In this document: positions 45,241 through 64,000 of the stretch, piece after piece
Layout: each line of letters starts with the position of its first letter
Numbering within the stretch: the stretch's first letter is position 1
Assembly: GCF_000003195.3 (NCBI RefSeq)
Contig: NW_018396401.1
Span: 310,660-374,659 of the forward strand
Origin: Sorghum bicolor
Lineage: Eukaryota; Streptophyta; Magnoliopsida; Poales; Poaceae
DNA: 64,000 bases
Direction: 5' to 3'
Position numbers and translations under genes: made by a program
Notes under the pieces: model-generated
What the model was told of the DNA's origin: nothing
What the model saw: only the letters and a program-made list of their open reading frames with translations
Database searches by the model: none

Positions 45241-46100
45241 CACTGAGAGCCAAAAAGAAAACCTACAGCCCAAATTCATATGTGCTACTGATTTTGTAGT
45301 TTGCTTTATCGAGTTTTAATCCTTTAATATTTGTCTAGTTGCTGAATTTTTCTTTTCCACATTGTTCTAGTTATTATCTTTGTTCTAATCATCAAATTGC
45401 TTGCTGCATGTACCCATCCATCCCACCCTTGATCTGATCATCATTGCTTGCTGCGTATATATAAACAAAAAAAATACCCACCCATCCCACCCTTGTTTTC
45501 TAACCGCCACATATTCCCCACCGCAGTTTCTTGTTTTTGTGCTGCACCATCCATCTTAGTGATCCCCTTTAGTTGAAAGTTATGCTGCGTTTGACACAGA
45601 GGTTAAAAGAAAAGATGTCTATGGGTCAAAAGAAGGACTGAAAACGAGTTTTTGTTCCAAAAAAAAAGAGAAAAAAAAAAGAAAAGAAGAAAGAAAAAAA
45701 AAAGAAAAACAAAAAGAGAACTGTGTGCAGCACACCAAAAAGGGGTTTGGGCAGCAACAAGTTTTCGGTTGGTGCAAATTGGTGATCATCTATCCACTTA
45801 CTACATCTCATTCCTTTCTTTGTGCATCCTTTCCTTTATATTCAGCAACTTAGACTTCTGTTCTTGGATTATTATTTGGTTTTGCATCACTACATTTCAG
45901 TGCATTCCACTAACATATTACCCCACCAAGCTCCACTTAAAGCACCATGAGTTGTTGCACCGTCGTCGCTGTTACAATCACTCTTCCCTACAGATCGCAG
46001 CCCCGGTTCTTGCTCTTTTCAGGGAGAGAAAGAACTTGTTTTGTAAGTGGTGAGGGAGTGATTCCACATATATATTGTCCTTTTTTTTTCCTCTACTAAC
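45241..46100 (+). other. 5' leader of a CRM-like Ty3/gypsy element
   Basis: Non-coding DNA with pyrimidine-rich stretches and a long A/G run at 45657-45720, ending at the gag ATG. Positions 45490-46100 are repeated in inverted orientation at 63390-64000. No PBS or LTR edge is visible before the junction with the minus-strand pol near 45240. Confidence 0.7.
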
Positions 46101-47837
46101 ATGGCAGGACGTGGAGATGGTGCCGCTATTTCGGTGGAGGAATTTCAGGAGTTGCGTACACAAATGAATGATTTGGTGCAGCAGCTCCAAACTCTCCAAT
46201 TGAACATACCACGTCGAGAACCGCCACCAAATGAGGATGATGATATTGACGAGGAGGATGAGCCACCGCGTCGTCCCGCTGGTCGTGGACGTGGCGGGCG
46301 TGGTCATGGTCTTCTTAATTTTGGTCGTGCTCGGCGCATTCCTGTTCGAGGTGGACGAGATTATGATGGTGATGATGATATGTTGTCTGACATGGATGAT
46401 CATCGCCATGGTGGCCATCGTGGTTATCGTGACCGCCACCGTCGCCTTGATGATGATGGTTTAAGCAAAGTGAAAGTGTCTATTCCAAAATTTAATGGAA
46501 AAGAAAGTGCTGATGATTATTTTGAGTGGGAGACTAAGGTTGAACAGATCTTTGATTTGTATCCTTATCCTCCTGTCAAGAAAGCAAAGCTTGCTGCAAT
46601 TGAGTTTTCAGGCTATGCAATCACTTGGTGGAATCAAGTGTGTACTGAACTCCGACGCGCTGGACATGATCGTATTACTTGGGAAGACATGAAGAGGGAA
46701 ATGCGACGTCGTTTTGTTCCTGCATATTACTCTCGTGATCTACATTTGAAGCTAAAACGTCTTGTGCAAGGTACTCGTACTGTTGATGAATATTTTCAAG
46801 AATTGGAAATGTGTTTACTTCGTACAGGGATAACTGAAGATGAGGAATCCACAATGGCTCGATTTCTGGTTGGCCTCAATAAGCCCATTGCTGATAAAGT
46901 GGATATGACAAACTACACATGTCTCACTGAGTTGGTACATTTTGCAAAAAGGGCAGAACGACAACTTGCTCGATCTTATAAAGATCGTGCTTCATTTTCA
47001 GCTCATAATAGTGCTACTTCATGGCGCCAGTCACAGCAGCACGGGTCAGGGGTGCACACACCTACATCTCGTGCAACTTCTTCCAAACATTTTGATTCCA
47101 AAGGCAAAGCTGTAAGCTCTACTCAGTCCAGCTCCTCTGCTACTGCAGCCCCAAGGCATACAAGCAAGATTGAGTGTTTTAAGTGTGGTGGTCATGGGCA
47201 TAAGCAAGCTGAATGTCCCAATCGTCGTACGATTATTGCCCTTGCTGATGGTACATATGATTCACAAAGTGAAGAGGAGGACGAGTTTCACAATGTCTTT
47301 GCAGATCATACTCTTGACACTTGTGAGTATTCAGCTGAGGATGGTACTTTTGAGCTAGGTCTGAATTGTTTAGCTATTCAACCTATTCTAACTTTTGCTC
47401 CCAGTGACATGATAGAAGATGTTATTTCTCCATATTCTAATGAGATTACTAGTGCTGATTTTGATGAGTTGCTTGCTGATTTTCCTGATTTGGAGCCTTC
47501 TAAAATGAATAGATCATCTCCTTATTTGGTGGTTAGAAGAGTTCTTTCCACTCAGTTTGTTGCTGCTGAACAAGGACAACGTCATAATTTGTTTCAGTCC
47601 CGATGCAAAGTGAAAGGTCAAGTGTGTCGTTTCATCATAGATGGTGGGAGCTGCAATAATATTGTTAGTGCCTTGCTTGTTGAGAAGCTTGGCCTACCAA
47701 CACGCCGCCATCCACACCCTTACCATATGCAGTGGCTGAATAATTCAGGGGACAGTGAAGGTCTCATCCATGGTTCGTTTGTCTTTCTCCATTGGTGACT
47801 ATCATGGTGAGGTTGATTGTGATATTGTACCCATGCA
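46101..47837 (+). pseudogene. gag: CRM-like gypsy Gag and start of protease, truncated
   Basis: The frame starts MAGRGDGAAISVEEF with an Arg/Gly-rich segment (about 50-90). The retrotransposon gag domain follows ('PKFNGKESADDYFEWE', 'LKRLVQGTRTVDEYFQELE'), then a zinc knuckle CFKCGGHGHKQAEC (near 47176), then an aspartic protease (IDGGSCNN near 47640). The frame is lost near 47770-47798, where an alternate frame continues as 'FSIGDYHGEVDCD', so one base is missing or extra. The element is cut at 47837/47838, where chromovirus sequence begins through a short shared 'aagcac'. Gag and pol in one frame fits the CRM lineage. The pol at 42406-45240 belongs to the same family but points the other way. 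Confidence 0.87.
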
Positions 47838-48659
47838 AGCACAGCCTATCATCCCCAGACTTCAGGTCAAACCGAGAGGCTAAATCAAGTGTTAGAAGAC
47901 ATGCTGAGGGCCTGTGTGCTATCATCCAAGGGATCATGGGAATCGTGGTTACCGTTGGCTGAATTCTCCTACAATAATAGTTATCAAGAGAGCATCAAGA
48001 TGGCCCCGTTTGAAGCTTTGTATGGTCGAAGATGTAGAACTCCGTTAAACTGGGTTGAACCTGGTGAAAGAAGATACTATGGTATCGACTTTGTGAATGA
48101 TGCCGAGAAAAAGGTGCATATCATACAGCAGCATATGCAAGCAGCACAGTCACGACAAAAGAGTTATGCGGATAAGAGAAGAAGGCCACTTGAATTCAAC
48201 ATAGGTGACTATGTGTACCTCAAGGTTACGCCAATGAAGAAAATTCAACGTTTCCGAGTTCGAAGCAAGCTTGCACCCAGATATGTGGGACCGTACCAAG
48301 TGCTAGAGAGGAAAGGCCCAGTGGCCTATAAGATTCAGTTACCTGAAGAGATGAGCTCGATCTTTCCGGTCTTGCATGTGTCGCAACTACGGAAATGTTT
48401 GAAAGTGCCTGAGCAAAGAATTGAACCTCGAGGGATCAAGATAAAAGCAGACCTAGAGTATAAGGAGCAGCCAGTGGGGATTGTGGATACCAAGGAGCGA
48501 GTAACCCGAAACAAAGTTGTCAGAACTTATAAAGTGGTGTGGAGTCATCATGACGATAGGGATGCCACTTGGGAAACAGAGGATTACTTAAAAACAGTTT
48601 ATCCAAAATTTCATAAGAAATGGTTAGTAACCCAAAATCTCGGGACGAGATTTCCCTAA
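47838..48659 (+). pseudogene. pol: Chromovirus integrase C-terminus with chromodomain (truncated partner copy)
   Basis: This segment equals 58467-59183 of the full element with, by eye, one difference, and continues past the point where that copy falls into the gap. It begins inside the integrase core at '[17 protein letters not shown]' (the catalytic Glu is kept). It passes the GPY/F region ('[24 protein letters not shown]') and ends with a chromodomain: '[21 protein letters not shown]' then 'VWSHHDDRDATWETEDYL' and 'YPKFHKKW'. Chromodomains of this type read methylated histone H3 and can steer integration to heterochromatin. The stop TAA is at 48657-48659, followed by the polypurine tract. 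It is the only complete chromodomain in the window. Confidence 0.93.
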
Positions 48660-48670
48660 GGGGGGAAGGG
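48659..48670 (+). promoter_or_regulatory. Polypurine tract before the chromovirus LTR
   Basis: AGGGGGGAAGGG one base before the LTR start TGTAACACC, the usual second-strand priming site. Confidence 0.85.
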
Positions 48671-48671
48671 C

Positions 48672-51600
48672 TGTAACACCCTAGGTGTTAAGCAAGCACT
48701 TAGTCTCATCAAAGTCATGCATAAGCACTCTCATCAATCATAAGCATCATGAGCATGTCATTCTTCTAAGAATATGATTTTATGTGCAGCATTTCATAAG
48801 TTTTAAATATGTTAAAAATGTGGTGCTTGTTTCTAAAATAGTGAAATATTCAAATTAGGTTGCTTTATGTGTAAGAAGAATTAAGAACATTTTTGTGCAA
48901 TTTTTGGAGCTATGGAAATTGAGAAATGGAATTTATACAAAATATCTAAAATAACTTTATTTAAAAACCCAGAACTAAGTTTTAATTGGTAATTCAAATT
49001 CTATTTAGAATTTGGTCTTACCTATTAAAGCAAAGTTGTAGAGCTTTTAGTTTGGCACCACTTTGCTTTTGGGTGAAAATGGTGAAAATGATTTGAAAAT
49101 GGTCAAAATGCTTTTGGAAGAGGATTTGAGAAAAGAAATTCAAAAAAAAAATAGAAAAGGGAAAGGGGGCGCTAGCAGGCCGCGGCCTCGCTTCTGGCCC
49201 GCTGGCCGAAGCCGGCCTGGCCCGCCCGCGCCTTCCCCTTCCCCCTCCTCGCGCTCGCGCCCGCATCCGCGCGCGCGGACGGCCTCGTCGTGCCGCCGTG
49301 GCGCGCCGGCAGAGCCTGGCCGCCGCGTGGCGGGCATGCGACGGCGTGGAGATGCCCTGGTCGGCCACTAGGAGCCCCTGGACGCGCTCGCCGAGGCCCC
49401 CGCTCCCATTTGCGCCCTCCACCGCTCGCTCTCGCCTCTCTGCTCGCTCTCGCGCAGCGCTCGCCGCTCCGCCGCACGCCATAGCCGCCGACGGCTCGGA
49501 GCTCCTCTCCCGGCCAGCTCCGGCCCTCTCCTTCCCCTTCGCGACCACCACCGGCTCCGCCTCGTCCTTCCGCGTCGCGTGCTTGCGCTCTTCCGCGCTC
49601 GGTAAGCCCTGCGTGTCCGCTAGAGCTCACCGGAGTAAGTCGGAGCTCCGGCGACCTCTCGGCTCGCGCGGTTCTCCCTCTCCTCTCTGTCTCTGCTTGC
49701 GCTCGTAGGTGCTTTGGGTCCGCCTTGACCTCGCGCACCTTTTCCCGTCACTAGCTCACGCTCTACCGCCGTGAAACGGCCGGACCACGGCGAGCAGCGC
49801 CGCCGCGTCCGCCATTCACGACGGCGAGGTAGTTCCGGTGCTCGTCCGGTGCCAAAGAGGGTACGGCTGGACTCGTCTCGTTCGCGCGAAGCCGTAGGTG
49901 CTCACGGTGTCGCCGGAAACCTCACCGGCGGCGAGATTCCGGCCGATCTTTGGCCGCGGGGTCACGGGCTGGATGACAGGTGGGGTCCTCTGACTCGCGT
50001 GTCCCACCTGTCAGTGACTCAGAGGGAATGGATCCGGGTGCGTTTAGTGTTTTAGGTGGTTTTCCGTTTTAAAAGTTTTTCCAGGAAATGATTTAAATGT
50101 TCAAAAATCCATATCTTGATGAATATAGCTCCAAAAATGGTGAAATAAATTTTGGTGTGTTCCTTATTTCCAGATCTACAGCCTAGTATGATTGCATGTC
50201 ATGTTTGAGTAACTTTCCTGTAAGAATATAATTAATCCATGTTTTTCCTAAACTTGGAAAATGCATAGTAAATAAAATAGGGTTCAGAAAAATGTAAAAC
50301 TTGTTTTGCTGGCTCTGCATGTGTGTTTAATCACCGAGAAAATATTGTTACATATTATTTGGTGAATTAATGAATTTATGGTAATTTAAATGCTTTCATG
50401 GCAGTGCTTTATGATTTTTAATAATTAAATGGGTCATGCAATAAATCTGGAAAATTTTGTGGGTGTTTCTTATGATATTAGATAAATTGTAAAAATATGA
50501 AATCTGTTGTTTGACACTTATATCACAGTAGGGTGATTATACTTGCCTTATCCATTAATATTGTGATTTTTGTGGCCCAAAATAAGTATCCAAAAATCAT
50601 GAAAATTTTATAGTAGACTTTATGCTTAGCTGATAGTCTCCTGTAATTTTTGTGGAATTTATTGATGAACAGAATTGCATTTGATTTTTAATGGGCTTAG
50701 AAATGAATAAAGAAAACTATGAATGGTTGTATATATAGGTTGAATGGAGTAAGTTGGGTTTGGTGTATCTTTGAAGCATCATGGAGGTTGCTGGTTGCAT
50801 TTGAAAAATAATTATAGAAGAGAATGTAATAGATGTTTGATTCAATTATTTATTCTTGGATGATGTTGACTACCTTGTAATAAGCATGACCAAGTGCATT
50901 ACCTATGCATCATAACATGACTCCTTTGGTACTCTCCCATATAAGCATCCACTCAGGCATCTCGCACTCCACTCATGAGCATATATGCATCATACAGGCT
51001 CGCAGGAGAACGAGGTGGGAACCGAGGAACCCAAGGAGATACAGGAGCAGGAACCTCCGGAAACACAGGAAACCGGAGAGGAATTGCAAGAGTGTCCGGA
51101 TCACCGACCCAGCACCTTTGAGAAAGGCAAGCCCCGGAGCATTCTAAGTCTCCCTATTCTCGCTAACTTATGTGATGCACTATACTTGTTCTACTACTGC
51201 ATTTAAGTGGTAGGAGTTGCCTGATACCGTTGCTGCATATGTACTCCTTGTTATCCTTACTCGTTTATCTACCTTGTCCTATGTAGATAGGTGCGGAGTC
51301 TATGCTTAGCTTGCTTAGTCCGGTAGAAGTCGGGTGATTCCCTGTCACCTGCGAGATATAGGTGGATACCTGCTTGATTAAGCAACGGATGCTTGGGGAT
51401 AGGAATAACCAAGTGTGGAATGTAATGGGAGACCGGGCAGGGACTTATGGTGGGTCGACCATAGTGCCCCCGCCTGTGTCGATTAAGGACCGATCGTTGA
51501 CGGCCCTCTTGTCATGTTGAACGCATGCCCCACATTTAGCTGGAAGGATAAGTCGTTCCGACCGCGAAGCCTGAGCACTATCCGGGCCGGGAATCGGCCC

Positions 51601-52632
51601 GATGTACGCGCTGTATTGGTGATGGTTGAGGAGAACGACGAGGGCGCGGCGCGCAACCTTGGTATACCTTGGATACCTCGGTCGCCGGAACGGTCCTCGG
51701 GTACGGGCGGTGCCTGTCGAACCCGCGAATTGGTCCTGGATAGTGCAACACGGTGACCTGTAGCTGACTTGATCAGTGAGTGTGGTTTGTGTGGGGAATA
51801 AATTCGCCAGCTGGTTAGAAATCGATTCGAATCGCCATCGCTCCTGGATAGTGAGCACTTGACATGAGCCCTGTCCTCGTAGTAAGGACTATGGAACACT
51901 TGGGTTATAATGATGAATAGTTTTAAGAAATGCTATGATGAGGTACTATCATAGTCTCATACTTGCTTGTAATAGTGCAGGTGCAAACCTAGACGATAGG
52001 TAATGATACTTTCAACTTGAGCCAATTAAAAGAAGAAAGACTTATGTAGGTTATGTTAGCGAAATACTGCGGTTTTGCAAAATGGTCGTCAGCTACCCCA
52101 CTATATAGCCTTCATGATCCTTGATGAGTCTTTATTTTAAGTTTATGACGGGTAAGTCTAGCTGAGTACCTTCTCGTACTCAGGGTTCTATTCCCATGTT
52201 GTTTTGCAGATGGTCAAATGTACTATGGTTATTGCATCCTCTGTCTGTACCCAGCTATGGGTGATGACTAGACCAAGGGCGATGGTCACTCCGTCTCTTC
52301 TTTTGCTTTTGTGGGAATGACCGAACTATGGCACTGTAACAGACTTATCGTGTGTGTTGTAATTTCAAACTATGAAGCTTCCGCTACTTGAAGAACTTGG
52401 TTTGTAATAACTTTAAGCACTCCGATGTATTTTATGAATGTTGTAATCTGGATGTACTTGTGGATGGCGACCGCTAAACTTATTACGATCTTGGCTGTTA
52501 TGTGATGTGTGGTTTGAAATCCATCGAGATTTCACGGACTACCGGGATTATATGGGCTTAAGCGTGATAGTTCGACTATGCAAATGGTCACTATTAGGCT
52601 TAATCTCTTATAATTTGGTCGGTTCTGTTACA
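48672..52632 (+). repeat. Chromovirus 5' LTR (3961 bp)
   Basis: Starts TGTAACACCC after the polypurine tract and ends GGTTCTGTTACA before the PBS. A GC-rich block (about 49165-50040) is set in AT-rich flanks. A donor-like CG|GTAAGC is at 49602, and an acceptor-like 'catacag' at 50997 precedes a coding-like stretch 'QENEVGTEEP'. Another 'ttttgcag' precedes an ATG at 52210. Predicted ORFs on either strand (for example 51445-51899 minus) match no family and appear in both LTRs. Confidence 0.93.
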
Positions 52633-52634
52633 GC

Positions 52635-52646
52635 TGGCATCGGAGC
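52635..52646 (+). promoter_or_regulatory. Primer binding site of the chromovirus
   Basis: TGGCATCGGAGC, two bases from TGGTATCAGAGC, starting two bases after the LTR. Confidence 0.8.
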
Positions 52647-53452
52647 AAGGTTTAGCGAGTTACTGTTCATAAGTACGTTCTAAACAAAATCTAAACCGGT
52701 CTAATGAAGGATTTTGGTAATTAATAAGGATCAAGGTGTTAAACTAAGTTTTGGAAAATTATCTAGTGTGCCATGGTCATATCCTTTATGCCCAGTTAAG
52801 GACTCTATGGTGGCTAGTTAAGTACTGACTTGGGGGTTAATGCATCATATTTTCATTTCGTCGCTCATACGGCGTGCAAATAGTATGAGTGCCATTCATT
52901 TGAGTGGTAATGTATGGATCAATTCTTCCTCTACGCCATGGTAAGTGGGAGTTGTGAGAGCATGATCGGATACACTGCCGGTCTAGGGGAGTGTTGTCAG
53001 GTGCTGTGCCATGCGCACATGTTGGTGTGTCTTGGGAACAGTACCGCATGCTGGGAATTCCGTCCTGAGAGGCGATGCCGTCAATAGGGCGATGATGTGG
53101 GTAGTGGCACGTCACATGCATAGACGGGTGTCTGTGTATGTGAAGTGCATGGTTTTAAATTCTTGCTCTGCATGATCATATTGTGGGTGGGCTGAAATGA
53201 GTTTTCTGCAGGTACACTAACCACGTTCTCGCTTAGAACGCTAGTTACGTTATGAGAGAACGTTGTGTGCCACCGCATATACCACTTAGTGTTAACCTTT
53301 GTTTCTAAGTTTGTGAGATCGTAAGCTCGTGCATACATCATGTTCATTTCATATCATTGCTTACTTTCCCCCTTAATTTAATCTGTCCCAATTCTAAATA
53401 AAATAATTAAAGGTAATCCTCACTCTTACCCACGGTATTCCATTTGCAGCAG
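52647..53452 (+). other. Chromovirus leader before the extra ORF
   Basis: About 800 bases with no ORF of note on the element strand. It ends in a pyrimidine-rich stretch and 'tttgcagcag', a tandem acceptor-like NAGNAG, directly before the ATG of the next ORF. Confidence 0.6.
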
Positions 53453-54496
53453 ATGGCACGCACTAGGCTCACCGCTCGCAAGTCCACTGGTGGGCGGGCC
53501 CCTCGCCGTCCGTTGGCAGCTAGGAGCTCGCGACATAAGAGCAAGTTCCTAGAGGAGTTTGGGATGCCCACTTTGCTTTGGAGGGTGCTCAGTTCGATGG
53601 GGTATCCCGAAGGAAGGGAGCCTCGCTACTATTGGGATAAGGAGCCGCTTGGTGATGAGACCCTGGTGGGGATCGAGGCAGTTGTCCCTACCAGTGGAGG
53701 AGACCCTGCTTGGGGCGGTTGGGTGTACGAGTCCCGAGGTGTCACGCCTTTCCACGGTGCCAGCAGGGCAGCTTTCGCAGTTTTGAGGGACCTCATGGAG
53801 AGGTTTCCACAGGAGCTGGCCCACGCCTTCGCTAGGGTGTTTCCCCGGGGTGACCCTTACACTTCGGTGTGGGATCAGTCCGAGGTGAATGCTCTAGAGA
53901 GGAGTGCGGATGAGGACCAGCACAGTGACAGTGCAGCTATGAGTGCCATGTACGCATTGATGAAGACCTATGGAGGCCTGGAGCGTTGTTTGGGTCGCTT
54001 GTCCGGGTCTCTTCTCACCGTCCAGGATGAGAAGCGTCAGTTGCAGCGTGAGTTTGACTCTGAGGTTGAGAGGCTACAGGCAGAGTTGGCTCGTGTGACC
54101 AGAGAGAGAGACCAGGCAGTCCAGAAGAACAGTGAGCTGAGTCAGGACCTGCTTGCAGTGCGGGAGCAGAAGGACAGGGTGACTACTGCTCACAGGAACT
54201 GCGAGCGCATGCTAGTCCATGTGCTTGGACAGAGGAATGAAGCCTGGCACGAGGAGGACACTTTGAGGGCCCGACAGCTGGAGCTAGAGCAGCAGCTAGC
54301 TAATGCTGAGGAGTACAATGAGAACTTGCATGAGGAGATCCACCAGCTGCATAACCAGCTCCACCCTCACCACCTGCCTGGAGCAGCTGAGCTAGACTCT
54401 GAGGACGAGATGGACGCGGATCCCGAGATAGGGGCAGCTGCTAGTGGTGATGAGGATGAGGATGGCTCTGGCATGGACAGTGATCATAGCGACTAG
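53453..54496 (+). CDS. Extra ORF before gag with a histone H3 tail-like N-terminus
   Basis: 347 residues from ATG 53453, the first in-frame ATG after a stop at 53414. After the Met it reads ARTRLTARKSTGG, then RAPRRPLAARSSRHKS. Against the H3 tail, 17 of the first 26 residues match, including A1-R2-T3, T6-A7-R8-K9-S10-T11-G12-G13, A15-P16-R17 and L20-A21. K4, K14, K18 and K23 are Arg, K27 is His, and K9 is kept. A globular region of unknown family follows (about 35-165, 'WGGWVYESRGVTPFHGASRA'), then a long coiled coil (about 185-305) and a strongly acidic C-terminus (about 312-347). The frame is intact although pol is not. ORFs in this position are known for related rice elements; their function is unknown. 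Mimicry of H3 is inference. Confidence 0.9.
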   Translation: MARTRLTARKSTGGRAPRRPLAARSSRHKSKFLEEFGMPTLLWRVLSSMGYPEGREPRYYWDKEPLGDETLVGIEAVVPTSGGDPAWGGWVYESRGVTPFHGASRAAFAVLRDLMERFPQELAHAFARVFPRGDPYTSVWDQSEVNALERSADEDQHSDSAAMSAMYALMKTYGGLERCLGRLSGSLLTVQDEKRQLQREFDSEVERLQAELARVTRERDQAVQKNSELSQDLLAVREQKDRVTTAHRNCERMLVHVLGQRNEAWHEEDTLRARQLELEQQLANAEEYNENLHEEIHQLHNQLHPHHLPGAAELDSEDEMDADPEIGAAASGDEDEDGSGMDSDHSD

Positions 54497-54814
54497 ATGC
54501 TAGGGCTCTAGAGCTAGTCTTTCCTCTTTTGTGATGTATGTTGCATGGCATGTCATGTACTTTTGGATCTGGGCTGTGTAAGACTTTATGAGTTGATGCT
54601 GGAAGTCCAGTGTATGTATGCTGGCAAGTTGGATGTACGCGAACCTTGTTGCGTGAATGTTAAGTAATCTGTTAGTGATGTTGTGCGTGGATGATGAGTT
54701 GTTGTGCCTTTGTTTATTGTGTGAATTTATTCCCTCAGTAAATTCAGTATGGCACGATTTTACACATTTTCTACCGGTTGATGGCAACTCCTAACGATTG
54801 CTTATCATTGGCGT
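54497..54814 (+). other. Spacer between the extra ORF and gag
   Basis: About 320 bases, non-coding. It ends with a branch-point-like CTAAC (near 54790) and 'gtatgcag' directly before ATGG, so a 3' splice site here could place gag as the first ORF of a spliced RNA. Confidence 0.55.
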
Positions 54815-55900
54815 ATGCAGATGGTACGAACACGTGGCGGGGGTAACGGCAACCCGGGTCTTGGAACAGGTACATCCGGAAATGGGGCTCAACGGAATGA
54901 GGACCGAGCGCCAACACCACCACCACCTCCCCCGTACACTGCGGATGTGTTTTTCGCGCAGTTTCTGGGAAGCCAACGCAACATGGAGCAGATGCAGCGC
55001 AACATGGAAGAAGCTTTGCGCAACATAGCTGACAACACCCGTCGTGGAGATAATCAGGGTGGCCGGGAGGTCAACCAGTACAGTTCGTTCAAGGACTTCA
55101 TGGATACCAAGCCACCAATCTTCAAAGAGGCTTTGGAACCCCTCGAGGCAGATGAATGGATCAATACCATGGAGCAGAAGTTTCGTCTTCTTCGGATGAC
55201 AGAAGAACTCAAGGCTGAGTATGCGGCACATCAGTTGCAAGGACCCGCTGGGATTTGGTGGTCCCATCACCGTACCACCTACCCAGAGGGGACACCAATC
55301 ACCTGGAACCGCTTCACCACCGCTTTCCGGGGAAATTACATTCCTCCTGGTGTGGTTGAAATGAAGGTTGGGGAGTTCATGAGGCTGTCCCAGGGGACGA
55401 AATCTGTGAAAGAGTATCTACATGCCTTCAATAATCTCGCTCGATATGCCCCTGAGTTTGTAAACACGGAGGCCAAGAAGATTGCTAGTTTCCAGAGGGG
55501 CTTGAATCCAAAGATGCTGAAGACCATGGGTACAGGGGCCAGGGCTACTTTCAATGCCTATATCAGCGACTGTCTGACCCAAGAGAACAATAACAACAAC
55601 TACAGTGCATCCAAGTCACGTAAAAGGGCTTTTGAAGCAGGATCATCCCAGTCCAGGGCACCAGTGGCAGGGCGACAGCAGTATCGTCCTCCTGCCCCGG
55701 GTGCTAGGTTCCGACCGCCGCAGAGAAGGAACACCGGGCATCCAACACAACAGAAGCCGTACAAGGTGGCGATAGCCCCTGCCAAGCCAAAGGCAATTCA
55801 AGCTGCAGCACCTGCCGCCAACAATGCGCCCAAGGGTCCATGCTATAACTGCCACAAGATGGGGCACTTTGCTAAGGAATGTCCCTACCCCAAAAGGTAG
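54815..55900 (+). CDS. gag: Chromovirus Gag
   Basis: The start is ATG 54815 or more likely 54821 (MVRTRGGGNG), after the acceptor-like 'tatgcag'. A Gly- and Pro-rich N-terminus is followed by a retrotransposon gag domain ('DFMDTKPPIFKEALEPLEADEWIN', 'GTKSVKEYLHAFNNLARYAPEF'), then a basic Gln/Pro/Arg-rich linker, then a CCHC knuckle CYNCHKMGHFAKEC (55841-55882). Gag builds the particle and binds element RNA. A TAG at 55898-55900 follows CPYPKR. The same frame stays open into protease beyond it, so TAG is either a recent CAG-to-TAG change or a suppressible gag-pol stop. Confidence 0.92.
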   Translation: MQMVRTRGGGNGNPGLGTGTSGNGAQRNEDRAPTPPPPPPYTADVFFAQFLGSQRNMEQMQRNMEEALRNIADNTRRGDNQGGREVNQYSSFKDFMDTKPPIFKEALEPLEADEWINTMEQKFRLLRMTEELKAEYAAHQLQGPAGIWWSHHRTTYPEGTPITWNRFTTAFRGNYIPPGVVEMKVGEFMRLSQGTKSVKEYLHAFNNLARYAPEFVNTEAKKIASFQRGLNPKMLKTMGTGARATFNAYISDCLTQENNNNNYSASKSRKRAFEAGSSQSRAPVAGRQQYRPPAPGARFRPPQRRNTGHPTQQKPYKVAIAPAKPKAIQAAAPAANNAPKGPCYNCHKMGHFAKECPYPKR

Positions 55901-58900
55901 CAGCCAACCTATCCAGCTCGTGTGCACCATACCTCGATCGAGGAGATTCCGGAAGGAGAACCGGTAACAGCTGGTATGTTTCCTGTCAACCAACATCTTG
56001 CAGTTGTGTTGTTTGATTCTGGATCATCGCATTCATTCATGAGCCAAGCATTTGCACAAAAGCATGATCAGCCAGTTACTGAGTTAGGTTATGGCTATCG
56101 CATCAGCTCAGCCGGAGCCGATGTGTTGACTAATAAAACGGTAACAGGAGTTACCTTGGATATCAGTGGTCGGAGGTTCCGTGTAAATCTTGTGGTCATG
56201 CCAGGACTGGTTTTGGATGTCATCATTGGAATGAACAAGATGACTGATTGGGGCGCGGTTATAGATACCGGGAATAGAACTCTTTCCCTTAGAGACCCGC
56301 AAGGGAAGGGGGTGCTTCAGGTCAAGCTACCTAGACGGTTGGACTTCGCCAGTCTTTCATGTGCAGTACAGGTAGTCCCTCTAGAACACATACCCGTGGT
56401 ATGTGAGTTCCCTGATGTGTTTCCTGAGGATTTACCAGGACTTCCCCAGATAGGGAGGTAGAGTTTGCAATCGAGTTGATACTAGGTACAGCACCAATAT
56501 CTAGAAGGCCGTATCGGATGCCCCCAAATGAACTCGCTGAGTTGAAGAATCAACTAAAAGAGTTGCTGGATAAAGGGTTCATCCGGCCAAGCTCATCGGA
56601 ATGGGGTTGTCCAGCGTTGTTTGTGAAAAAGAAGGATCAGTCGTTGCGCATGTGCGTGGACTATCGTCCACTCAATGCAGTGACAATCAAAAATAAGTAT
56701 CCCTTGCCAAGGATTGATATCCTGTTTGATCAGTTATCCAAGGCAAGAGTGTTTTCTAAGATAGATTTGAGATCTGGGTATCACCAAATCAAGATTCGTC
56801 CGCAAGATATCCCGAAGACTGCTTTTTCCACCAGATATGGGTTGTATGAGTATCTTGTCATGTCCTTTGGGTTGACAAATGCTCCTGCATACTTTATGTA
56901 TCTAATGAATTCAGTCTTTATGCCAGAATTGGATAAGTTTGTTGTGGTGTTTATCGATGATATTCTGGTGTATTCAGAAAATGAGCAAGATCACGCCGAG
57001 CATCTGAGAATCGTGCTGACACGATTACGAGAGCATCAGTTATATGCCAAGTTCAGCAAGTGTGAGTTCTGGTTGAAGAAAGTTCCTTTCTTAGGGCACA
57101 TTCTGTCTGAAGAAGGAATTGCTGTGGATCCATGAAAAGTGCAGGAAGTCATGGACTGGAAGGCACCAACTTCGGTCTCGGAAGTTAGAAGTTTTCTTGG
57201 TCTGGCTGGGTATTATCGTCGTTTTATACCTGACTTCTCCAAGATTGCTAAACCAATGACAAGTTTGCTACAAAAGGACCATAAGTTTGTCTGGACGGAA
57301 GGGTGTGAGATAGCCTTCCGCACCTTGCGAAAGTTGTTAACCACTGCTCCCGTTCTGGCACAACCTAATATAGAGAAGCCTTTTGATGTGTTTTGTGACG
57401 CATCGAAGAGTGGCCTGGGGTGTGTGTTGATGCAAGATGGCAGGGTGATAGCTTATGCTTCCCGATAGTTGAGAAAGCATGAAGTCAATTACCCAACGCA
57501 CGACCTCGAGTTAGCAGCTGTGGTGCATGCTTTGAAGATCTGGAGACATTTTGTGTTAGGAAATAAGTGTCACATTTACACCGATCACAAGAGTTTGAAG
57601 TACATCTTCACTCAGTCCGAGCTGAATATGAGGCAACGACGGTGGTTAGAGCTAATCAAGGATTATGATCTAGAAGTTCACTATCATCCAGGCAAAGCTA
57701 ATGTAGTAGCAGATGCTCTAAGTCGTAAACCACACTGTCAAGTGGTTCAACCGTTGTTTGAAGATGGGTTCAATCTCATGCATTCTGAGGTCTTATGTCA
57801 TATACAACTCAGTTGTTCACTCGAGAGTCAAGTCATTGAAGGTCAGAAAACAGACAAGGGTATCTTCCATATCAAAGAAAAGATCAAGGATGACCCAAAG
57901 ACTCAGTTTCGGGTTGATGAGAAAGGGGTACTGTGGTTTCAACAGCGGTTAGTGGTCCCGAAAGATCGGGAGTTGAAGAATCGCATCATGGATGAAGCCC
58001 ATCTCTCTAAGCTTTCTATTCATCCTGGCAGCAGCAAAATGTATCAAGATGTAAGGCCCCACTTTTGGTGGACCAAGATGAAGAAAGAAATAGCCGCTTA
58101 TGTGGCCCGTTGTGACACGTGTTGCAGGGTTAAGGCCATTCATATGAAACCTGCAGGTCTGTTGCAACCGTTATTAGTTCCGGAGTGGAAATGGGAAGAG
58201 GTCAGTATGGACTTTATCACGGGTTTACCGACAACTAGGAAGGGGAATGACTCGATTTGGGTAATCATAGATCGATTGACCAAATCGGCCCTTTTCATCC
58301 CTGTGAAGACTCGTTACCGACCTCCTGAGTATGCCGATATATATATGGCTGAGATTGTCAAGTTGCATGGTATTCCCAAAACCATCATATCGGATAGAGG
58401 ACCGCAGTTCACTGCTCACTTCTGGGAGCGCATGCATAAAAGTTTGGGGACCAGTTTGATAAGAAGCACAGCCTATCATCCCCAGACTTCAGGTCAAACC
58501 GAGAGGCTAAATCAAGTGTTAGAAGACATGCTGAGGGCCTGTGTGCTATCATCCAAGGGATCATGGGAATCGTGGTTACCGTTGGCTGAATTCTCCTACA
58601 ATAATAGTTATCAAGAGAGCATCAAGATGGCCCCGTTTGAAGCTTTGTATGGTCGAAGATGTAGAACTCCGTTAAACTGGGTTGAACCTGGTGAAAGAAG
58701 ATACTATGGTATCGACTTTGTGAATGATGCCGAGAAAAAGGTGCATATCATACAGCAGCATATGCAAGCGGCACAGTCACGACAAAAGAGTTATGCGGAT
58801 AAGAGAAGAAGGCCACTTGAATTCAACATAGGTGACTATGTGTACCTCAAGGTTACGCCAATGAAGAAAATTCAACGTTTCCGAGTTCGAAGCAAGCTTG

Positions 58901-59183
58901 CACCCAGATATGTGGGACCGTACCAAGTGCTAGAGAGGAAAGGCCCAGTGGCCTATAAGATTCAGTTACCTGAAGAGATGAGCTCGATCTTTCCGGTCTT
59001 GCATGTGTCGCAACTACGGAAATGTTTGAAAGTGCCTGAGCAAAGAATTGAACCTCGAGGGATCAAGATAAAAGCAGACCTAGAGTATAAGGAGCAGCCA
59101 GTGGGGATTGTGGATACCAAGGAGCGAGTAACCCGAAACAAAGTTGTCAGAACTTATAAAGTGGTGTGGAGTCATCATGACGA
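55901..59183 (+). pseudogene. pol: Chromovirus Pol (PR-RT-RNase H-INT), with stops, a frameshift and a gap
   Basis: Protease (FDSGSSHSF near 56015) is in the gag frame. At about 56441-56446 the frame slips: 'LPGLPQIGR' then TAG, where the next frame reads [10 protein letters not shown], as if one C were lost. RT follows ('[18 protein letters not shown]', '[14 protein letters not shown]', catalytic FIDD at 56952-56961), with TGA at 57133-57135 and TAG at 57466-57468 (in '[18 protein letters not shown]'; CAG to TAG is likely). RNase H ('[21 protein letters not shown]') and integrase ('CDTCCRVKA', 'SMDFITGLP', 'ISDRGPQF', 'GQTERLNQ', '[10 protein letters not shown]') then read through to the gap, which removes most of the chromodomain. 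RT before integrase is the Ty3/gypsy order. Confidence 0.93.
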
Positions 59184-59283
59184 NNNNNNNNNNNNNNNNN
59201 NNNNNNNNNNNNNNNNNNNNNNNNNNNNNNNNNNNNNNNNNNNNNNNNNNNNNNNNNNNNNNNNNNNNNNNNNNNNNNNNNNN
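59184..59283. other. Assembly gap (100 N)
   Basis: Exactly 100 Ns, the conventional placeholder for unknown length. Flanks align to 48556 and 48724 of the parallel copy, so about 167 bases are expected there: the chromodomain end, polypurine tract and first 52 bases of the LTR. Confidence 0.98.
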
Positions 59284-62200
59284 AGCACTCTCATCAATCA
59301 TAAGCATCATGAGCATGTCATTCTTCTAAGAATATGATTTTATGTGCAGCATTTCATAAGTTTTAAATATGTTAAAAATGTGGTGCTTGTTTCTAAAATA
59401 GTGAAATATTCAAATTAGGTTGCTTTATGTGTAAGAAGAATTAAGAACATTTTTGTGCAATTTTTGGAGCTATGGAAATTGAGAAATGGAATTTATACAA
59501 AATATCTAAAATAACTTTATTTAAAAACCCAGAACTAAGTTTTAATTGGTAATTCAAATTCTATTTAGAATTTGGTCTTACCTATTAAAGCAAAGTTGTA
59601 GAGCTTTTAGTTTGGCACCACTTTGCTTTTGGGTGAAAATGGTGAAAATGATTTGAAAATGGTCAAAATGCTTTTGGAAGAGGATTTGAGAAAAGAAATT
59701 CAAAAAAAAAAATAGAAAAGGGAAAGGGGGCGCTAGCAGGCCGCGGCCTCGCTTCTGGCCCGCTGGCCGAAGCCGGCCTGGCCCGCCCGCGCCTTCCCCT
59801 TCCCCCTCCTCGCGCTCGCGCCCGCATCCGCGCGCGCGGACGGCCTCGTCGTGCCGCCGTGGCGCGCCGGCAGAGCCTGGCCGCCGCGTGACGGGCATGC
59901 GACGGCGTGGAGATGCCCTGGTCGGCCACTAGGAGCCCCTGGACGCGCTCGCCGAAGCCCCCGCTCCCATTTGCGCCCTCCACCGCTCGCTCTCGCCTCT
60001 CTGCTCGCTCTCGCGCAGCGCTCGCCGCTCCGCCGCACGCCATAGCCGCCGACGGCTCGGAGCTCCTCTCCCGGCCAGCTCCGGCCCTCTCCTTCCCCTT
60101 CGCGACCACCACCGGCTCCGCCTCGTCCTTCCGCGTCGCGTGCTTGCGCTCTTCCGCGCTCGGTAAGCCCTGCGTGTCCGCTAGAGCTCACCGGAGTAAG
60201 TCGGAGCTCCGGCGACCTCTCGGCTCGCGCGGTTCTCCCTCTCCTCTCTGTCTCTGCTTGCGCTCATAGGTGCTTTGGGTCCGCCTTGACCTCGCGCACC
60301 TTTTCCCGTCACTAGCTCACGCTCTACCGCCGTGAAACGGCCGGACCACGGCGAGCAGCGCCGCCGCGTCCGCCATTCACGACGGCGAGGTAGTTCCGGT
60401 GCTCGTCCGGTGCCAAAGAGGGTACGGCTGGACTCGTCTCGTTCGCGCGAAGCCGTAGGTGCTCACGGTGTCGCCGGAAACCTCACCGGCGGCGAGATTC
60501 CGGCCGATCTTTGGCCGCGGGGTCACGGGCTGGATGACAGGTGGGGTCCTCTGACTCGCGTGTCCCACCTGTCAGTGACTCAGAGGGAATGGATCCGGGT
60601 GCGTTTAGTGTTTTAGGTGGTTTTCCGTTTTAAAAGTTTTTCCAGGAAATGATTTAAATGTTCAAAAATCCATATCTTGATGAATATAGCTCCAAAAATG
60701 GTGAAATAAATTTTGGTGTGTTCCTTATTTCCAGATCTACAGCCTAGTATGATTGCATGTCATGTTTGAGTAACTTTCCTGTAAGAATATAATTAATCCA
60801 TGTTTTTCCTAAACTTGGAAAATGCATAGTAAATAAAATAGGGTTCAGAAAAATGTAAAACTTGTTTTGCTGGCTCTGCATGTGTGTTTAATCACCGAGA
60901 AAATATTGTTACATATTATTTGGTGAATTAATGAATTTATGGTAATTTAAATGCTTTCATGGCAGTGCTTTATGATTTTTAATAATTAAATGGGTCATGC
61001 AATAAATCTGGAAAATTTTGTGGGTGTTTCTTATGATATTAGATAAATTGTAAAAATATGAAATCTGTTGTTTGACACTTATATCACAGTAGGGTGATTA
61101 TACTTGCCTTATCCATTAATATTGTGATTTTTGTGGCCCAAAATAAGTATCCAAAAATCATGAAAATTTTACAGTAGACTTTATGCTTAGCTGGTAGTCT
61201 CCTGTAATTTTTGTGGAATTTATTGATGAACAGAATTGCATTTGATTTTTAATGGGCTTAGAAATGAATAAAGAAAACTATGAATGGTTGTATATATAGG
61301 TTGAATGGAGTAAGTTGGGTTTGGTGTATCTTTGAAGCATCATGGAGGTTGCTGGTTGCATTTGAAAAATAATTATAGAAGAGAATGTAATAGATGTTTG
61401 ATTCAATTATTTATTCTTGGATGATGTTGACTACCTTGTAATAAGCATGACCAAGTGCATTACCTATGCATCATAACATGACTCCTTTGGTACTCTCCCA
61501 TATAAGCATCCACTCGGGCATCTCGCACTCCACTCATGAGCATATATGCATCATACAGGCTCGCAGGAGAACGAGGTGGGAACCGAGGAACCCGAGGAGA
61601 TACAGGAGCAGGAACCTCCGGAAACACAGGAAACCGGAGAGGAATTGCAAGAGTGTCCGGATCACCGACCCAGCACCTTTGAGAAAGGCAAGCCCCGGAG
61701 CATTCTAAGTCTCCCTATTCTCGCTAACTTATGTGATGCACTATACTTGTTCTACTACTGCATTTAAGTGGTAGGAGTTGCCTGATACCGTTGCTGCATA
61801 TGTACTCCTTGTTATCCTTACTCGTTTATCTACCTTGTCCTATGTAGATAGGCGCAGAGTCTATGCTTAGCTTGCTTAGTCCGGTAGAAGTCGGGTGATT
61901 CCCTGTCACCTGCGAGATATAGGTGGATACCTGCTTGATTAAGCAACGGATGCTTGGGGATAGGAATAACCAAGTGTGGAATGTAATGGGAGACCGGGCA
62001 GGGACTTATGGTGGGTCGACCATAGTGCCCCCGCCTGTGTCGATTAAGGACCGATCGTTGACGGCCCTCTTGTCATGTTGAACGCATGCCCCACATTTAG
62101 TTGGAAGGATAAGTCGTTCCGACCGCGAAGCCTGAGCACTATCCGGGCCGGGAATCGGCCCGATGTACGCGCTGTATTGGTGATGGTTGAGGAGAACGAC

Positions 62201-63193
62201 GAGGGCGCGGCGCGCAACCTTGGTATACCTTGGATACCTCGGTCGCCGGAACGGTCCTCGGGTACGGGCGGTGCCTGTCGAACCCGCGAATTGGTCCTGG
62301 ATAGTGCAACACGGTGACCTGTAGCTGACTTGATCAGTGAGTGTGGTTTGTGTGGGGAATAAATTCGCCAGCTGGTTAGAAATCGATTCGAATCGCCATC
62401 GCTCCTGGATAGTGAGCACTTGACATGAGCCCTGTCCTCGTAGTAAGGACTATGGAACACTTGGGTTATGATGATGAATAGTTTTAAGAAATGCTATGAT
62501 GAGGTACTATCATAGTCTCATACTTGCTTGTAATAGTGCAGGTGCAAACCTAGACGATAGGTAATGATACTTTCAACTTGAGCCAATTAAAAGAAGAAAG
62601 ACTTATGTAGGTTATGTTAGCGAAATACTGCGGTTTTGCAAAATGGTCGTCAGCTACCCCACTATATAGCCTTCATGATCCTTGATGAGTCTTTATTTTA
62701 AGTTTATGACGGGTAAGTCTAGCTGAGTACCTTCTCGTACTCAGGGTTCTATTCCCATGTTGTTTTGCAGATGGTCAAATGTACTATGGTTATTGCATCC
62801 TCTGTCTGTACCCAGCTATGGGTGGTGACTAGACCAAGGGCGATGGTCACTCCGTCTCTTCTTTTGCTTTTGTGGGAATGACCGAACTATGGCACTGTAA
62901 CAGACTTATCGTGTGTGTTGTAATTTCAAACTATGAAGCTTCCGCTACTTGAAGAACTTGGTTTGTAATAACTTTAAGCACTCCGATGTATTTTATGAAT
63001 GTTGTAATCTGGATGTACTTGTGGATGGCGACCGCTAAACTTATTACGATCTTGGCTGTTATGTGATGTGTGGTTTGAAATCCATCGAGATTTCACGGAC
63101 TACCGGGATTATATGGGCTTAAGCGTGATAGTTCGACTATGCAAATGGTCACTATTAGGCTTAATCTCTTATAATTTGGTCAGTTCTGTTACA
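59284..63193 (+). repeat. Chromovirus 3' LTR (start lost in the gap)
   Basis: Matches 48724-52632 almost base for base, ending TCAGTTCTGTTACA at 63193. Differences seen by eye are all transitions. Apparent ORFs are the same as in the 5' LTR. Confidence 0.95.
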
Positions 63194-63389
63194 CGCCACG
63201 TCCACGACCAGCGGGACGACGCGGTGGCTCATCCTCCTCGTCAATATCATCATCCTCATTTGGTGGCGGTTCTCGACGTGGTATGTTCAATTGGAGAGTT
63301 TGGAGCTGCTGCACCAAATCATTCATTTGTGTACGCAACTCCTGAAATTCCTCCACCGAAACAGCGGCACCATCTCCACGTCCTGCCAT
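63194..63389 (-). pseudogene. gag: CRM-like gypsy gag, first 65 codons (minus strand)
   Basis: The minus strand from ATG 63389 reads MAGRGDGAAVSVEEF to 'RRPAGRGRG', nearly identical to the gag start at 46101-46297, then is cut by the chromovirus LTR at 63193. The LTR end is exact, so this is a true integration point; the bases beside it are CGCCA. Confidence 0.92.
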
Positions 63390-64000
63390 GTTAGTAGAGG
63401 AAAAAAAAAGGACAATATATATGTGGAATCACTCCCTCACCACTTACAAAACAAGTTCTTTCTCTCCCTGAAAAGAGCAAGAACCGGGGCTGCGATCTGT
63501 AGGGAAGAGTGATTGTAACAGCGACGACGGTGCAACAACTCACGGTGCTTTAAGTGGAGCTTGGTGGGGTAATATGTTAGTGGAATGCACTGAAATGTAG
63601 TGATGCAAAACCAAATAATAATCCAAGAACAGAAGTCTAAGTTGCTGAATATAAAGGAAAGGATGCACAAAGAAAGGAATGAGATGTAGTAAGTGGATAG
63701 ATGATCACCAATTTGCACCAACCGAAAACTTGTTGCTGCCCAAACCCCTTTTTGGTGTGCTGCACACAGTTCTCTTTTTGTTTTTCTTTTTTTTTCTTTC
63801 TTGCTTTTCTTTTTTTTTTCTCTTTTTTTTTTGGAACAAAAACTCGTTTTCAGTCCTTCTTTTGACCCATAGACATCTTTTCTTTTAACCTCTGTGTCAA
63901 ACGCAGCACAACTTTCAACTAAAGGGGATCACTAAGACGGATGGTGCAGCACAAAAACAAGAAACTGCGGTGGGGAATATGTGGCGGTTAGAAAACAAGG
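63390..64000 (-). other. 5' leader of the CRM-like element (minus strand, runs off the window)
   Basis: Reverse complement of 45490-46100, including the long purine run (63770-63835 as pyrimidines). No LTR edge or PBS is reached before the window ends. Confidence 0.85.

What the first reader, a model, noticed from the sequence alone, without database searches (positions are those of the whole stretch)
53453..54496. Retrotransposon ORF whose N-terminus copies the histone H3 tail and keeps only the K9 site
Seen: after the initiator Met the protein reads ARTRLTARKSTGG and continues RAPRRPLA, matching H3 at 17 of the first 26 positions with no gap. The H3 lysines K4, K14, K18 and K23 are Arg and K27 is His, while K9 sits in an intact TARKSTGG context. 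A coiled coil and a very acidic C-terminus follow. Known: H3K9 methylation is the main heterochromatin mark, and chromodomains, including those of chromoviruses, read methylated H3 tails. Inference: the element encodes an H3K9 mimic that host K9 methyltransferases could modify. It might then be bound by the element's own integrase chromodomain or titrate host readers. A captured H3 gene fragment is the likely source. The ORF is intact although pol is broken.
Basis: partly seen in the sequence, partly recalled or inferred. Interest (0 to 1): 0.93.

Follow-up and report, generated by a model that had tools for sequence, protein, structure and literature searches.

The report
Histone H3 tail on retrotransposon protein
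A very abundant grass jumping gene carries an extra protein that begins with a copy of the histone H3 tail, shared by related elements, which suggests that it imitates the mark the plant uses to silence it.

Summary
Confirmed, and broader than reported. ORF 53453-54496 (347 aa, intact) lies between 5' LTR and gag of a Ty3/gypsy element with a Tekay-type chromodomain. Residues 2-27 match H3(1-26) at 17 of 26 positions; a profile of ten family members finds H3-family histones first in the PDB (E 1.1e-8). Other subfamilies are closer to H3 (up to 20 of 26). Among 33 tails K9 is kept in 32, K4 in 30, R2 in 27, while K14, K18 and K23 are nearly always lost: 'only K9' fits this subfamily, not the family. 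A dsRBD-like fold, a coiled coil and an acidic end follow. Of 117 scored genomic copies 100 lack stops. Against a general requirement: a divergent family in the same genome has the ORF without the tail, and within copies the tail is not better protected than the rest. R2, K4 and K9me2 are what the plant reader ADCP1 contacts. Best reading: a captured H3 tail acting as decoy or adaptor for host H3K9 readers or writers. The element's own chromodomain is an unlikely partner. Function is untested, and comparison with host H3 genes could not be run.

The parts
53453..54496 (+). 5' additional ORF (aORF, 347 aa), intact
   Evidence: 117 scored genomic matches, all aligned from residue 1, 100 of 117 without stops
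53456..53533 (+). H3-tail-like segment, aligned with H3 residues 1-26
   Evidence: 17 of 26 identical; profile E 1.1e-8 to histone H3
53480..53482 (+). Lys codon AAG at H3 K9 position
   Evidence: AAG in 28 of 28 genomic copies read; K in 32 of 33 family tails
53465..53467 (+). Arg codon at H3 K4 position (Lys in 30 of 33 family tails)
   Evidence: AGG in 27 and AGA in 1 of 28 copies
53564..53818 (+). dsRBD-like domain (residues 38-122), alpha-beta-beta-beta-alpha
53933..54361 (+). long coiled coil (residues 161-303)
54362..54493 (+). acidic, disordered C-terminus (16 D/E, no K/R in 44 residues)
53443..53452 (+). TTTGCAGCAG directly before the start ATG: candidate splice acceptor (inference)
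   Evidence: sequence; tail-less relatives have TTTCCACAG before their ATG; upstream peptide of some short relatives ends LLQM
48672..52632 (+). 5' LTR, TGTAACACCC...CTGTTACA
   Evidence: 99.64% identical to 3' copy over 3910 aligned positions
52635..52646 (+). candidate primer-binding site TGGCATCGGAGC
   Evidence: sequence; tRNA-Met type by recall
54821..55900 (+). gag ORF (Retrotrans_gag, zinc knuckle)
55922..57135 (+). protease and reverse transcriptase ORFs, broken into separate frames in this copy
57469..59183 (+). RNase H and integrase ORF, runs into the assembly gap
59184..63193 (+). assembly gap (100 N, 59184-59283) that hides the start of the 3' LTR, and the rest of the 3' LTR
47837..48671 (+). 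end of pol (integrase C-terminus, chromodomain, purine tract) of an upstream copy sharing the 5' LTR
   Evidence: 47837-48556 is 99.9% identical to 58464-59183; Chromo domain in the 47889-48656 frame, E 7e-4, below Pfam's cut-off

Best explanation
The ORF is the 5' additional ORF of a Tekay-like chromovirus. Its first 26 residues after Met are a captured histone H3 tail. After removal of Met the protein would start with A-R-T like H3 and carry a methylatable lysine in the K9 context (shown: sequence; inferred: processing and methylation). The coiled coil would make it multivalent and the dsRBD-like fold would serve as a protein-interaction or RNA-interaction module (fold predicted, function inferred). 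I think it most likely works as a histone mimic: host SUVH/KYP-type enzymes may methylate it and host H3K9me2/K4me0 readers (ADCP1/AGDP1, SHH1, CMT2/3) may bind it, so that silencing factors are titrated from, or steered relative to, the element. In this subfamily K4 is Arg and can never carry the K4 methylation that such readers do not accept.
For: Homology to H3. The tail is found in 33 proteins (the window's and 32 relatives); outside the tail the 32 relatives are 50-73% identical to the window's protein in 31 cases and 89% in one. Mean pairwise identity over nine sequences: 0.80 in the tail (H3 1-21), 0.40 in the linker right after it, 0.55 in residues 47-117. R2, K4 and K9 kept in 27, 30 and 32 of 33 tails while K14, K18 and K23 are Lys in 1, 0 and 0. 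ADCP1, called the plant HP1 by its authors, contacts R2, K4 and K9me2 and not A7, R8 or S10 (PMC6318295, section 6); SHH1 and ADCP1 read K9me2 together with unmethylated K4 (PMC7218100 and PMC7544125, passages). dsRBD fold with plant silencing proteins DRB7.2, DCL4 and DCL3 among the listed matches. Codons 2-14 carry no amino-acid change in 28 genomic copies.
Against: No binding, methylation or expression data. A divergent family in the same genome keeps the ORF without the tail, so the tail is not required for the ORF's basic role. Within 28 copies the first 27 codons have the highest amino-acid to silent ratio of six segments (0.19, against 0.03-0.18). Lysine codons have no CpG, while many lost arginines look like methylated-CpG decay (R to C/H/Q/W), so survival of K over R is partly mutational. 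Keeping just the two methyl sites of five lysines could be chance, as the losses are few independent events. ADCP1 does not directly contact A7, R8 or S10, so their conservation needs another partner. Canonical dsRNA-contact lysines (KKxAK, recalled) are not visible at the start of helix 2.
Confidence: 0.45

Rival explanations
1. Tether rather than decoy: the tail lets the protein, with element RNA or integration complexes, dock onto heterochromatin readers, steering nuclear retention or integration into silent chromatin.
For: Same footprint evidence as the best explanation; coiled coil; CHD_II of Tekay elements lacks cage residues Y24 and Y48 and its partner was not found (PMC3350952 passages), so an adaptor would fill a gap.
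Against: Scored copies lie on all ten long contigs, but insertion preference was not measured. No contact between this protein and integrase was tested.
Confidence: 0.25
2. Captured but no longer a mimic: the basic peptide serves only as nuclear-localisation or nucleic-acid-binding sequence.
For: 11 K/R against 2 D/E in residues 1-37; 5' aORF proteins of other Tekay elements are predicted nuclear (PMC11728184 passages); tail-less relatives exist; no stronger constraint on the tail than elsewhere within copies.
Against: A bare basic function would not need A1, T6, A7, S10, G12 and G13, which are kept in 32, 32, 33, 32, 29 and 32 of 33 tails, nor an exact ARTKQTARKSTGG in P0185 and P0164, which are 62% identical overall.
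Confidence: 0.24
3. The element's own integrase chromodomain binds the tail.
For: A chromodomain is encoded.
Against: By my reading only the tryptophan of the aromatic cage remains; group II chromodomains are described as lacking these aromatics (PMC12786077 passage).
Confidence: 0.04
4. Chance or assembly artefact.
For: None found.
Confidence: 0.01

Closest known systems
5' aORF / ORF0 of grass Tekay-lineage elements (Retrosat2, RIRE3, RIRE8, Sorsat2; PMC3485330 and PMC11728184, passages read)
   Same: Extra ORF between 5' LTR and gag in long-LTR elements; predicted nuclear protein; maize and sorghum versions reported as structurally like a DRBM protein, in line with the fold found here.
   Different: The passages read mention no H3 tail; 'histone' does not occur in either main text. 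I had no sequences of those ORFs to align.
Viral histone H3 mimics (influenza NS1, recalled; SARS-CoV-2 ORF8 ARKS claim, disputed: PMC10833455, search listing only)
   Same: Parasite protein with an H3-like, K9-type motif.
   Different: Those are short motifs (recalled); here about 26 residues at the N-terminus are homologous to H3, in an LTR retrotransposon of plants.
DRB/Dicer double-stranded RNA-binding domains
   Same: Predicted fold of about residues 36-123.
   Different: About 16% identity to the best matches and no canonical RNA-contact lysines seen; the two best rows are complexes of interaction domains.
Transposon-encoded anti-silencing proteins of Vandal elements (one passage in PMC11728184; the name VANC recalled)
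   Same: Proposed role: element-encoded protection from silencing.
   Different: DNA transposons; no H3 tail known to me.

Membership tests
Tekay-clade chromovirus | type II chromodomain with W kept and the two other cage aromatics lost | tested here: met
   by inspection of 48438-48641 in the upstream copy, since this copy runs into N
Tekay-clade chromovirus | chromodomain motifs (K/R)-X-(L/T)-R-X-(K/R) and EEXTWEXE | tested here: inconclusive
   RVTRNK fits the first; RDATWETE fits the second only in TWEXE (motifs from PMC3350952)
Tekay-clade chromovirus | reverse transcriptase groups with Tekay references | not tested
   no reference sequences fetched
Grass 5' aORF (ORF0) family | ORF between 5' LTR and gag, sense strand | tested here: met
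Grass 5' aORF (ORF0) family | sequence homology to published ORF0 proteins | not tested
   published sequences not available in session
Histone H3 mimic | sequence homologous to the H3 tail at the N-terminus | tested here: met
   Met removal inferred
Histone H3 mimic | modified or bound by H3 writers or readers | not testable with these tools
   needs assays
dsRBD fold | alpha-beta-beta-beta-alpha fold matching solved dsRBDs | tested here: met
   models only, Foldseek best E 6e-3
dsRBD fold | dsRNA-contact residues of canonical dsRBDs | tested here: inconclusive
   not seen at helix 2 start in the nine of ten sequences that the script printed; motif recalled

The most novel reading that the evidence does not exclude
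Grass Tekay-type retrotransposons carry a dedicated counter-silencing protein that joins a captured, K9-methylatable H3 tail to a DRB/Dicer-like dsRBD and a multimerising coiled coil, acting on the H3K9me2/K4me0 reader step and on small-RNA silencing at once.
Probability: 0.27. Interest if true: 0.93.

Novelty: new variant of a known kind. Interest (0 to 1): 0.82.

Why it matters
The extra ORFs of plant LTR retrotransposons mostly have no known function. A shared H3 tail gives one family of them a concrete, testable set of partners (H3K9 writers and readers), in elements present in very high copy number in a grass genome. If it works as a mimic, transposons and not only viruses use histone mimicry, and on the very mark that silences them.

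Tried and rejected
Chance resemblance: rejected. Own-chromodomain reader: unlikely. Pfam on the protein: 24 families up to E 10, none above its cut-off, the stretches lying in the C-terminal, coiled-coil half. Viral contigs and genome contigs: no relatives. Papers: ten searches, nine of which bear on novelty (one search was about SHH1): no listed title or abstract start describes an H3 tail in a retrotransposon ORF; listings were capped, most subscription papers and all preprints are not held. Comparison with host H3 genes: not completed. A sample of twenty 10-kb stretches, two from each long contig, gave three homologous ORFs, all of the tail-less family. Whether the tail was gained once or lost once is unresolved: the tail-less rows sit on a long branch of an unrooted tree (that tree labels P0107 'unk' although it has a tail, and its row there is not comparable because of a deletion).

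Rows not used: of the 216 proteins held (query and 215 homologs) 33 show a tail. They were picked by at least 10 of 26 matches to H3 behind a Met within the first 20 residues, which is partly circular; as a check, of the 216 only P0043, a gene model with integrase-like sequence in front, has 12 or more residues before its first match to the family and no tail. The other 182 start inside the protein, so their true N-termini could not be judged.

Full report
What is there. The frame 53453-54496 on the + strand is open and encodes 347 aa. It lies in an LTR retrotransposon: 5' LTR 48672-52632, candidate primer site 52635-52646, the ORF, gag from 54821, then protease, reverse transcriptase, RNase H and integrase frames, and a 3' LTR that ends at 63193. 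The LTRs are 99.64% identical over 3910 aligned positions, which suggests a young insertion, if both LTRs belong to one insertion. Pol is broken in this copy: its domains lie in separate ORFs, and 100 N (59184-59283) hide the end of pol and the start of the 3' LTR. Upstream of the 5' LTR lies the end of pol of another copy (47837-48671); 47837-48556 is 99.9% identical to 58464-59183, as in tandem elements sharing an LTR.

The H3 tail. Residues 2-27 match H3(1-26) at 17 of 26 positions. A PDB search with the whole protein matched 166 sequences up to E 10; the 60 shown are H3, H3 peptides or H3 variants (one is Cse4), best E 2.8e-4. A profile of ten family members (A4, the window's protein among them) gives H3 with E 1.1e-8 over profile positions 1-24. 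Shuffles of residues 2-61 never passed 10 matches in 20,000 trials.

Relatives. Three protein searches listed 42 matches, the best 120 of 230 and the best 120 of 220; with the query, 216 proteins were held. Thirty-three show the tail behind a Met: ten with the MPTLL segment of the middle domain (one of them, P0107, with most of that domain deleted) and 23 of a shorter subfamily without it. Outside the tail the 32 relatives are 50-73% identical to the window's protein, P0107 89%. The closest to H3 are P0185 and P0213 (20 of 26; residues 1-13 identical to H3); P0164, P0169 and P0146 start ARTKQTARKST; P0188 keeps K14 and T22. Across the family 23 of 26 H3 residues occur in at least one member, in register: capture of an H3 coding segment is the simplest source. 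The other relatives start at internal positions, presumably because of how genes were called, and say nothing about the tail; the one exception is P0043, a gene model from Miscanthus floridulus with integrase-like sequence in front. The remaining sources are listed as jgi, ena and lgn, presumably assemblies that hold plant DNA.

Which positions last. K9 is Lys in 32 of 33, K4 in 30, R2 is Arg in 27, A1 is Ala in 32; K14 is Lys in 1, K18 and K23 in none. The three without K4 are the window's protein, P0012 and P0107. So methylatable sites last and acetylatable ones are gone, but this is few independent events, and many Arg losses look like decay of methylated CpG while Lys codons hold no CpG.

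Conservation by segment. Over nine sequences mean pairwise identity is 0.83 in H3 1-13, 0.80 in H3 1-21, 0.40 in the linker 23-31, 0.91 in residues 32-46, 0.55 in 47-117 and 0.57 in 118-141.

Host genome. The genome (709 Mb, ten long contigs; size and contig lengths fit Sorghum bicolor by recall, no call names it) gave 3365 first-look candidates, of which 117 were scored; all 117 align from residue 1, and 100 of 117 have no stop. A search with P0185 scored 150 of 2368 candidates; all 150 align from its residue 1, at 56-59% identity, and many are copies already seen with the first query. In 28 copies read (the eight best and twenty picked along the list) codons 2-14 show no amino-acid change; in the first 27 codons the changes are at H3 positions 14 (1), 17 (1), 18 (5) and 24 (1). 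A simple count against the majority state gave 68 amino-acid and 275 silent changes, a site-corrected ratio of 0.07 for the whole ORF and 0.19 for the first 27 codons, the highest of the six segments. On this measure the tail is not better protected than the rest; it rests on 8 amino-acid changes, 7 of them at CpG arginines. These copies were ranked by protein identity, which lowers the ratios. In the eight best copies gag, which was not used for ranking, gives 0.11 (56 amino-acid, 147 silent), the ORF 0.02 (5 and 63), while the leader and the stretch between ORF and gag differ at 2.0% and 1.7% of positions. This fits selection on both ORFs in active lineages, with the bias stated.

Contrary finding. 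In twenty 10-kb stretches, two from each long contig, 5% of them N, three held homologs of this ORF (L031, L039, L040; 27-45% identity in the matches). All three belong to one family that starts MDAPASPRPSDTFLSEFG (L039; small variants in the others and, in L031, a frame change) and lacks the H3 tail. The ATG there follows TTTCCACAG, like TTTGCAGCAG here. On a tree of 30 rows two of them form a long branch, so single gain or single loss is open.

Expression. The 819-nt stretch before the ORF has 23 ATGs. CAG stands directly before the start codons of both the ORF and gag. I infer splicing to each ATG; this is not shown.

Mechanism. The plant H3K9me2 reader ADCP1 contacts R2, K4 and K9me2 and not A7, R8 or S10 (PMC6318295 section 6). 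ADCP1 and SHH1 read K9me2 with unmethylated K4, and SHH1 recruits Pol IV (PMC7218100, PMC7544125, passages). R2, K4 (or Arg) and K9 are what the family keeps. I therefore favour a decoy or adaptor for these readers and the enzymes that write K9me2, at 0.45, with heterochromatin tethering at 0.25 and a plain basic signal at 0.24.

Novelty. None of the nine paper searches that bear on it showed a description of this tail; the library is partial, and the survey of extra ORFs by Steinbauerova and colleagues, cited in PMC11728184, was not read. I rate it a new variant of a known kind: a known class of extra ORF with a histone-mimic N-terminus.

Noticed in passing
L031:3683, L039:3653, L040:3021 (near the starts of the first matches): A second, tail-less family of the same ORF in the host genome, with a splice-acceptor-like TTTCCACAG before its ATG.
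   Followed up: partly
window 47837-63193; G000:C7:8369431 and 8380029; C7:10709517 and 10720149; C14:41872, 51488, 61861: Copies of the ORF 9.6-10.6 kb apart, close to the 10.6-kb spacing of the repeats in the window: tandem elements sharing LTRs may be frequent.
   Followed up: no
G000:C7:41976540: One copy of the ORF lies in a 1345-residue open frame, perhaps joined to gag or pol.
   Followed up: no
P0107: A relative with an internal deletion that removes most of the dsRBD-like part but keeps tail, coiled coil and acidic end (18 of 26 to H3), separate from the short subfamily.
   Followed up: partly
window 45491-46296 and 63194-64000: The 3' LTR abuts an inverted copy (99.1%) of a gag-like stretch that also lies left of the element; rearrangement or misassembly.
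   Followed up: no
window 59184-59283: 100 N at the pol/3' LTR junction.
   Followed up: partly
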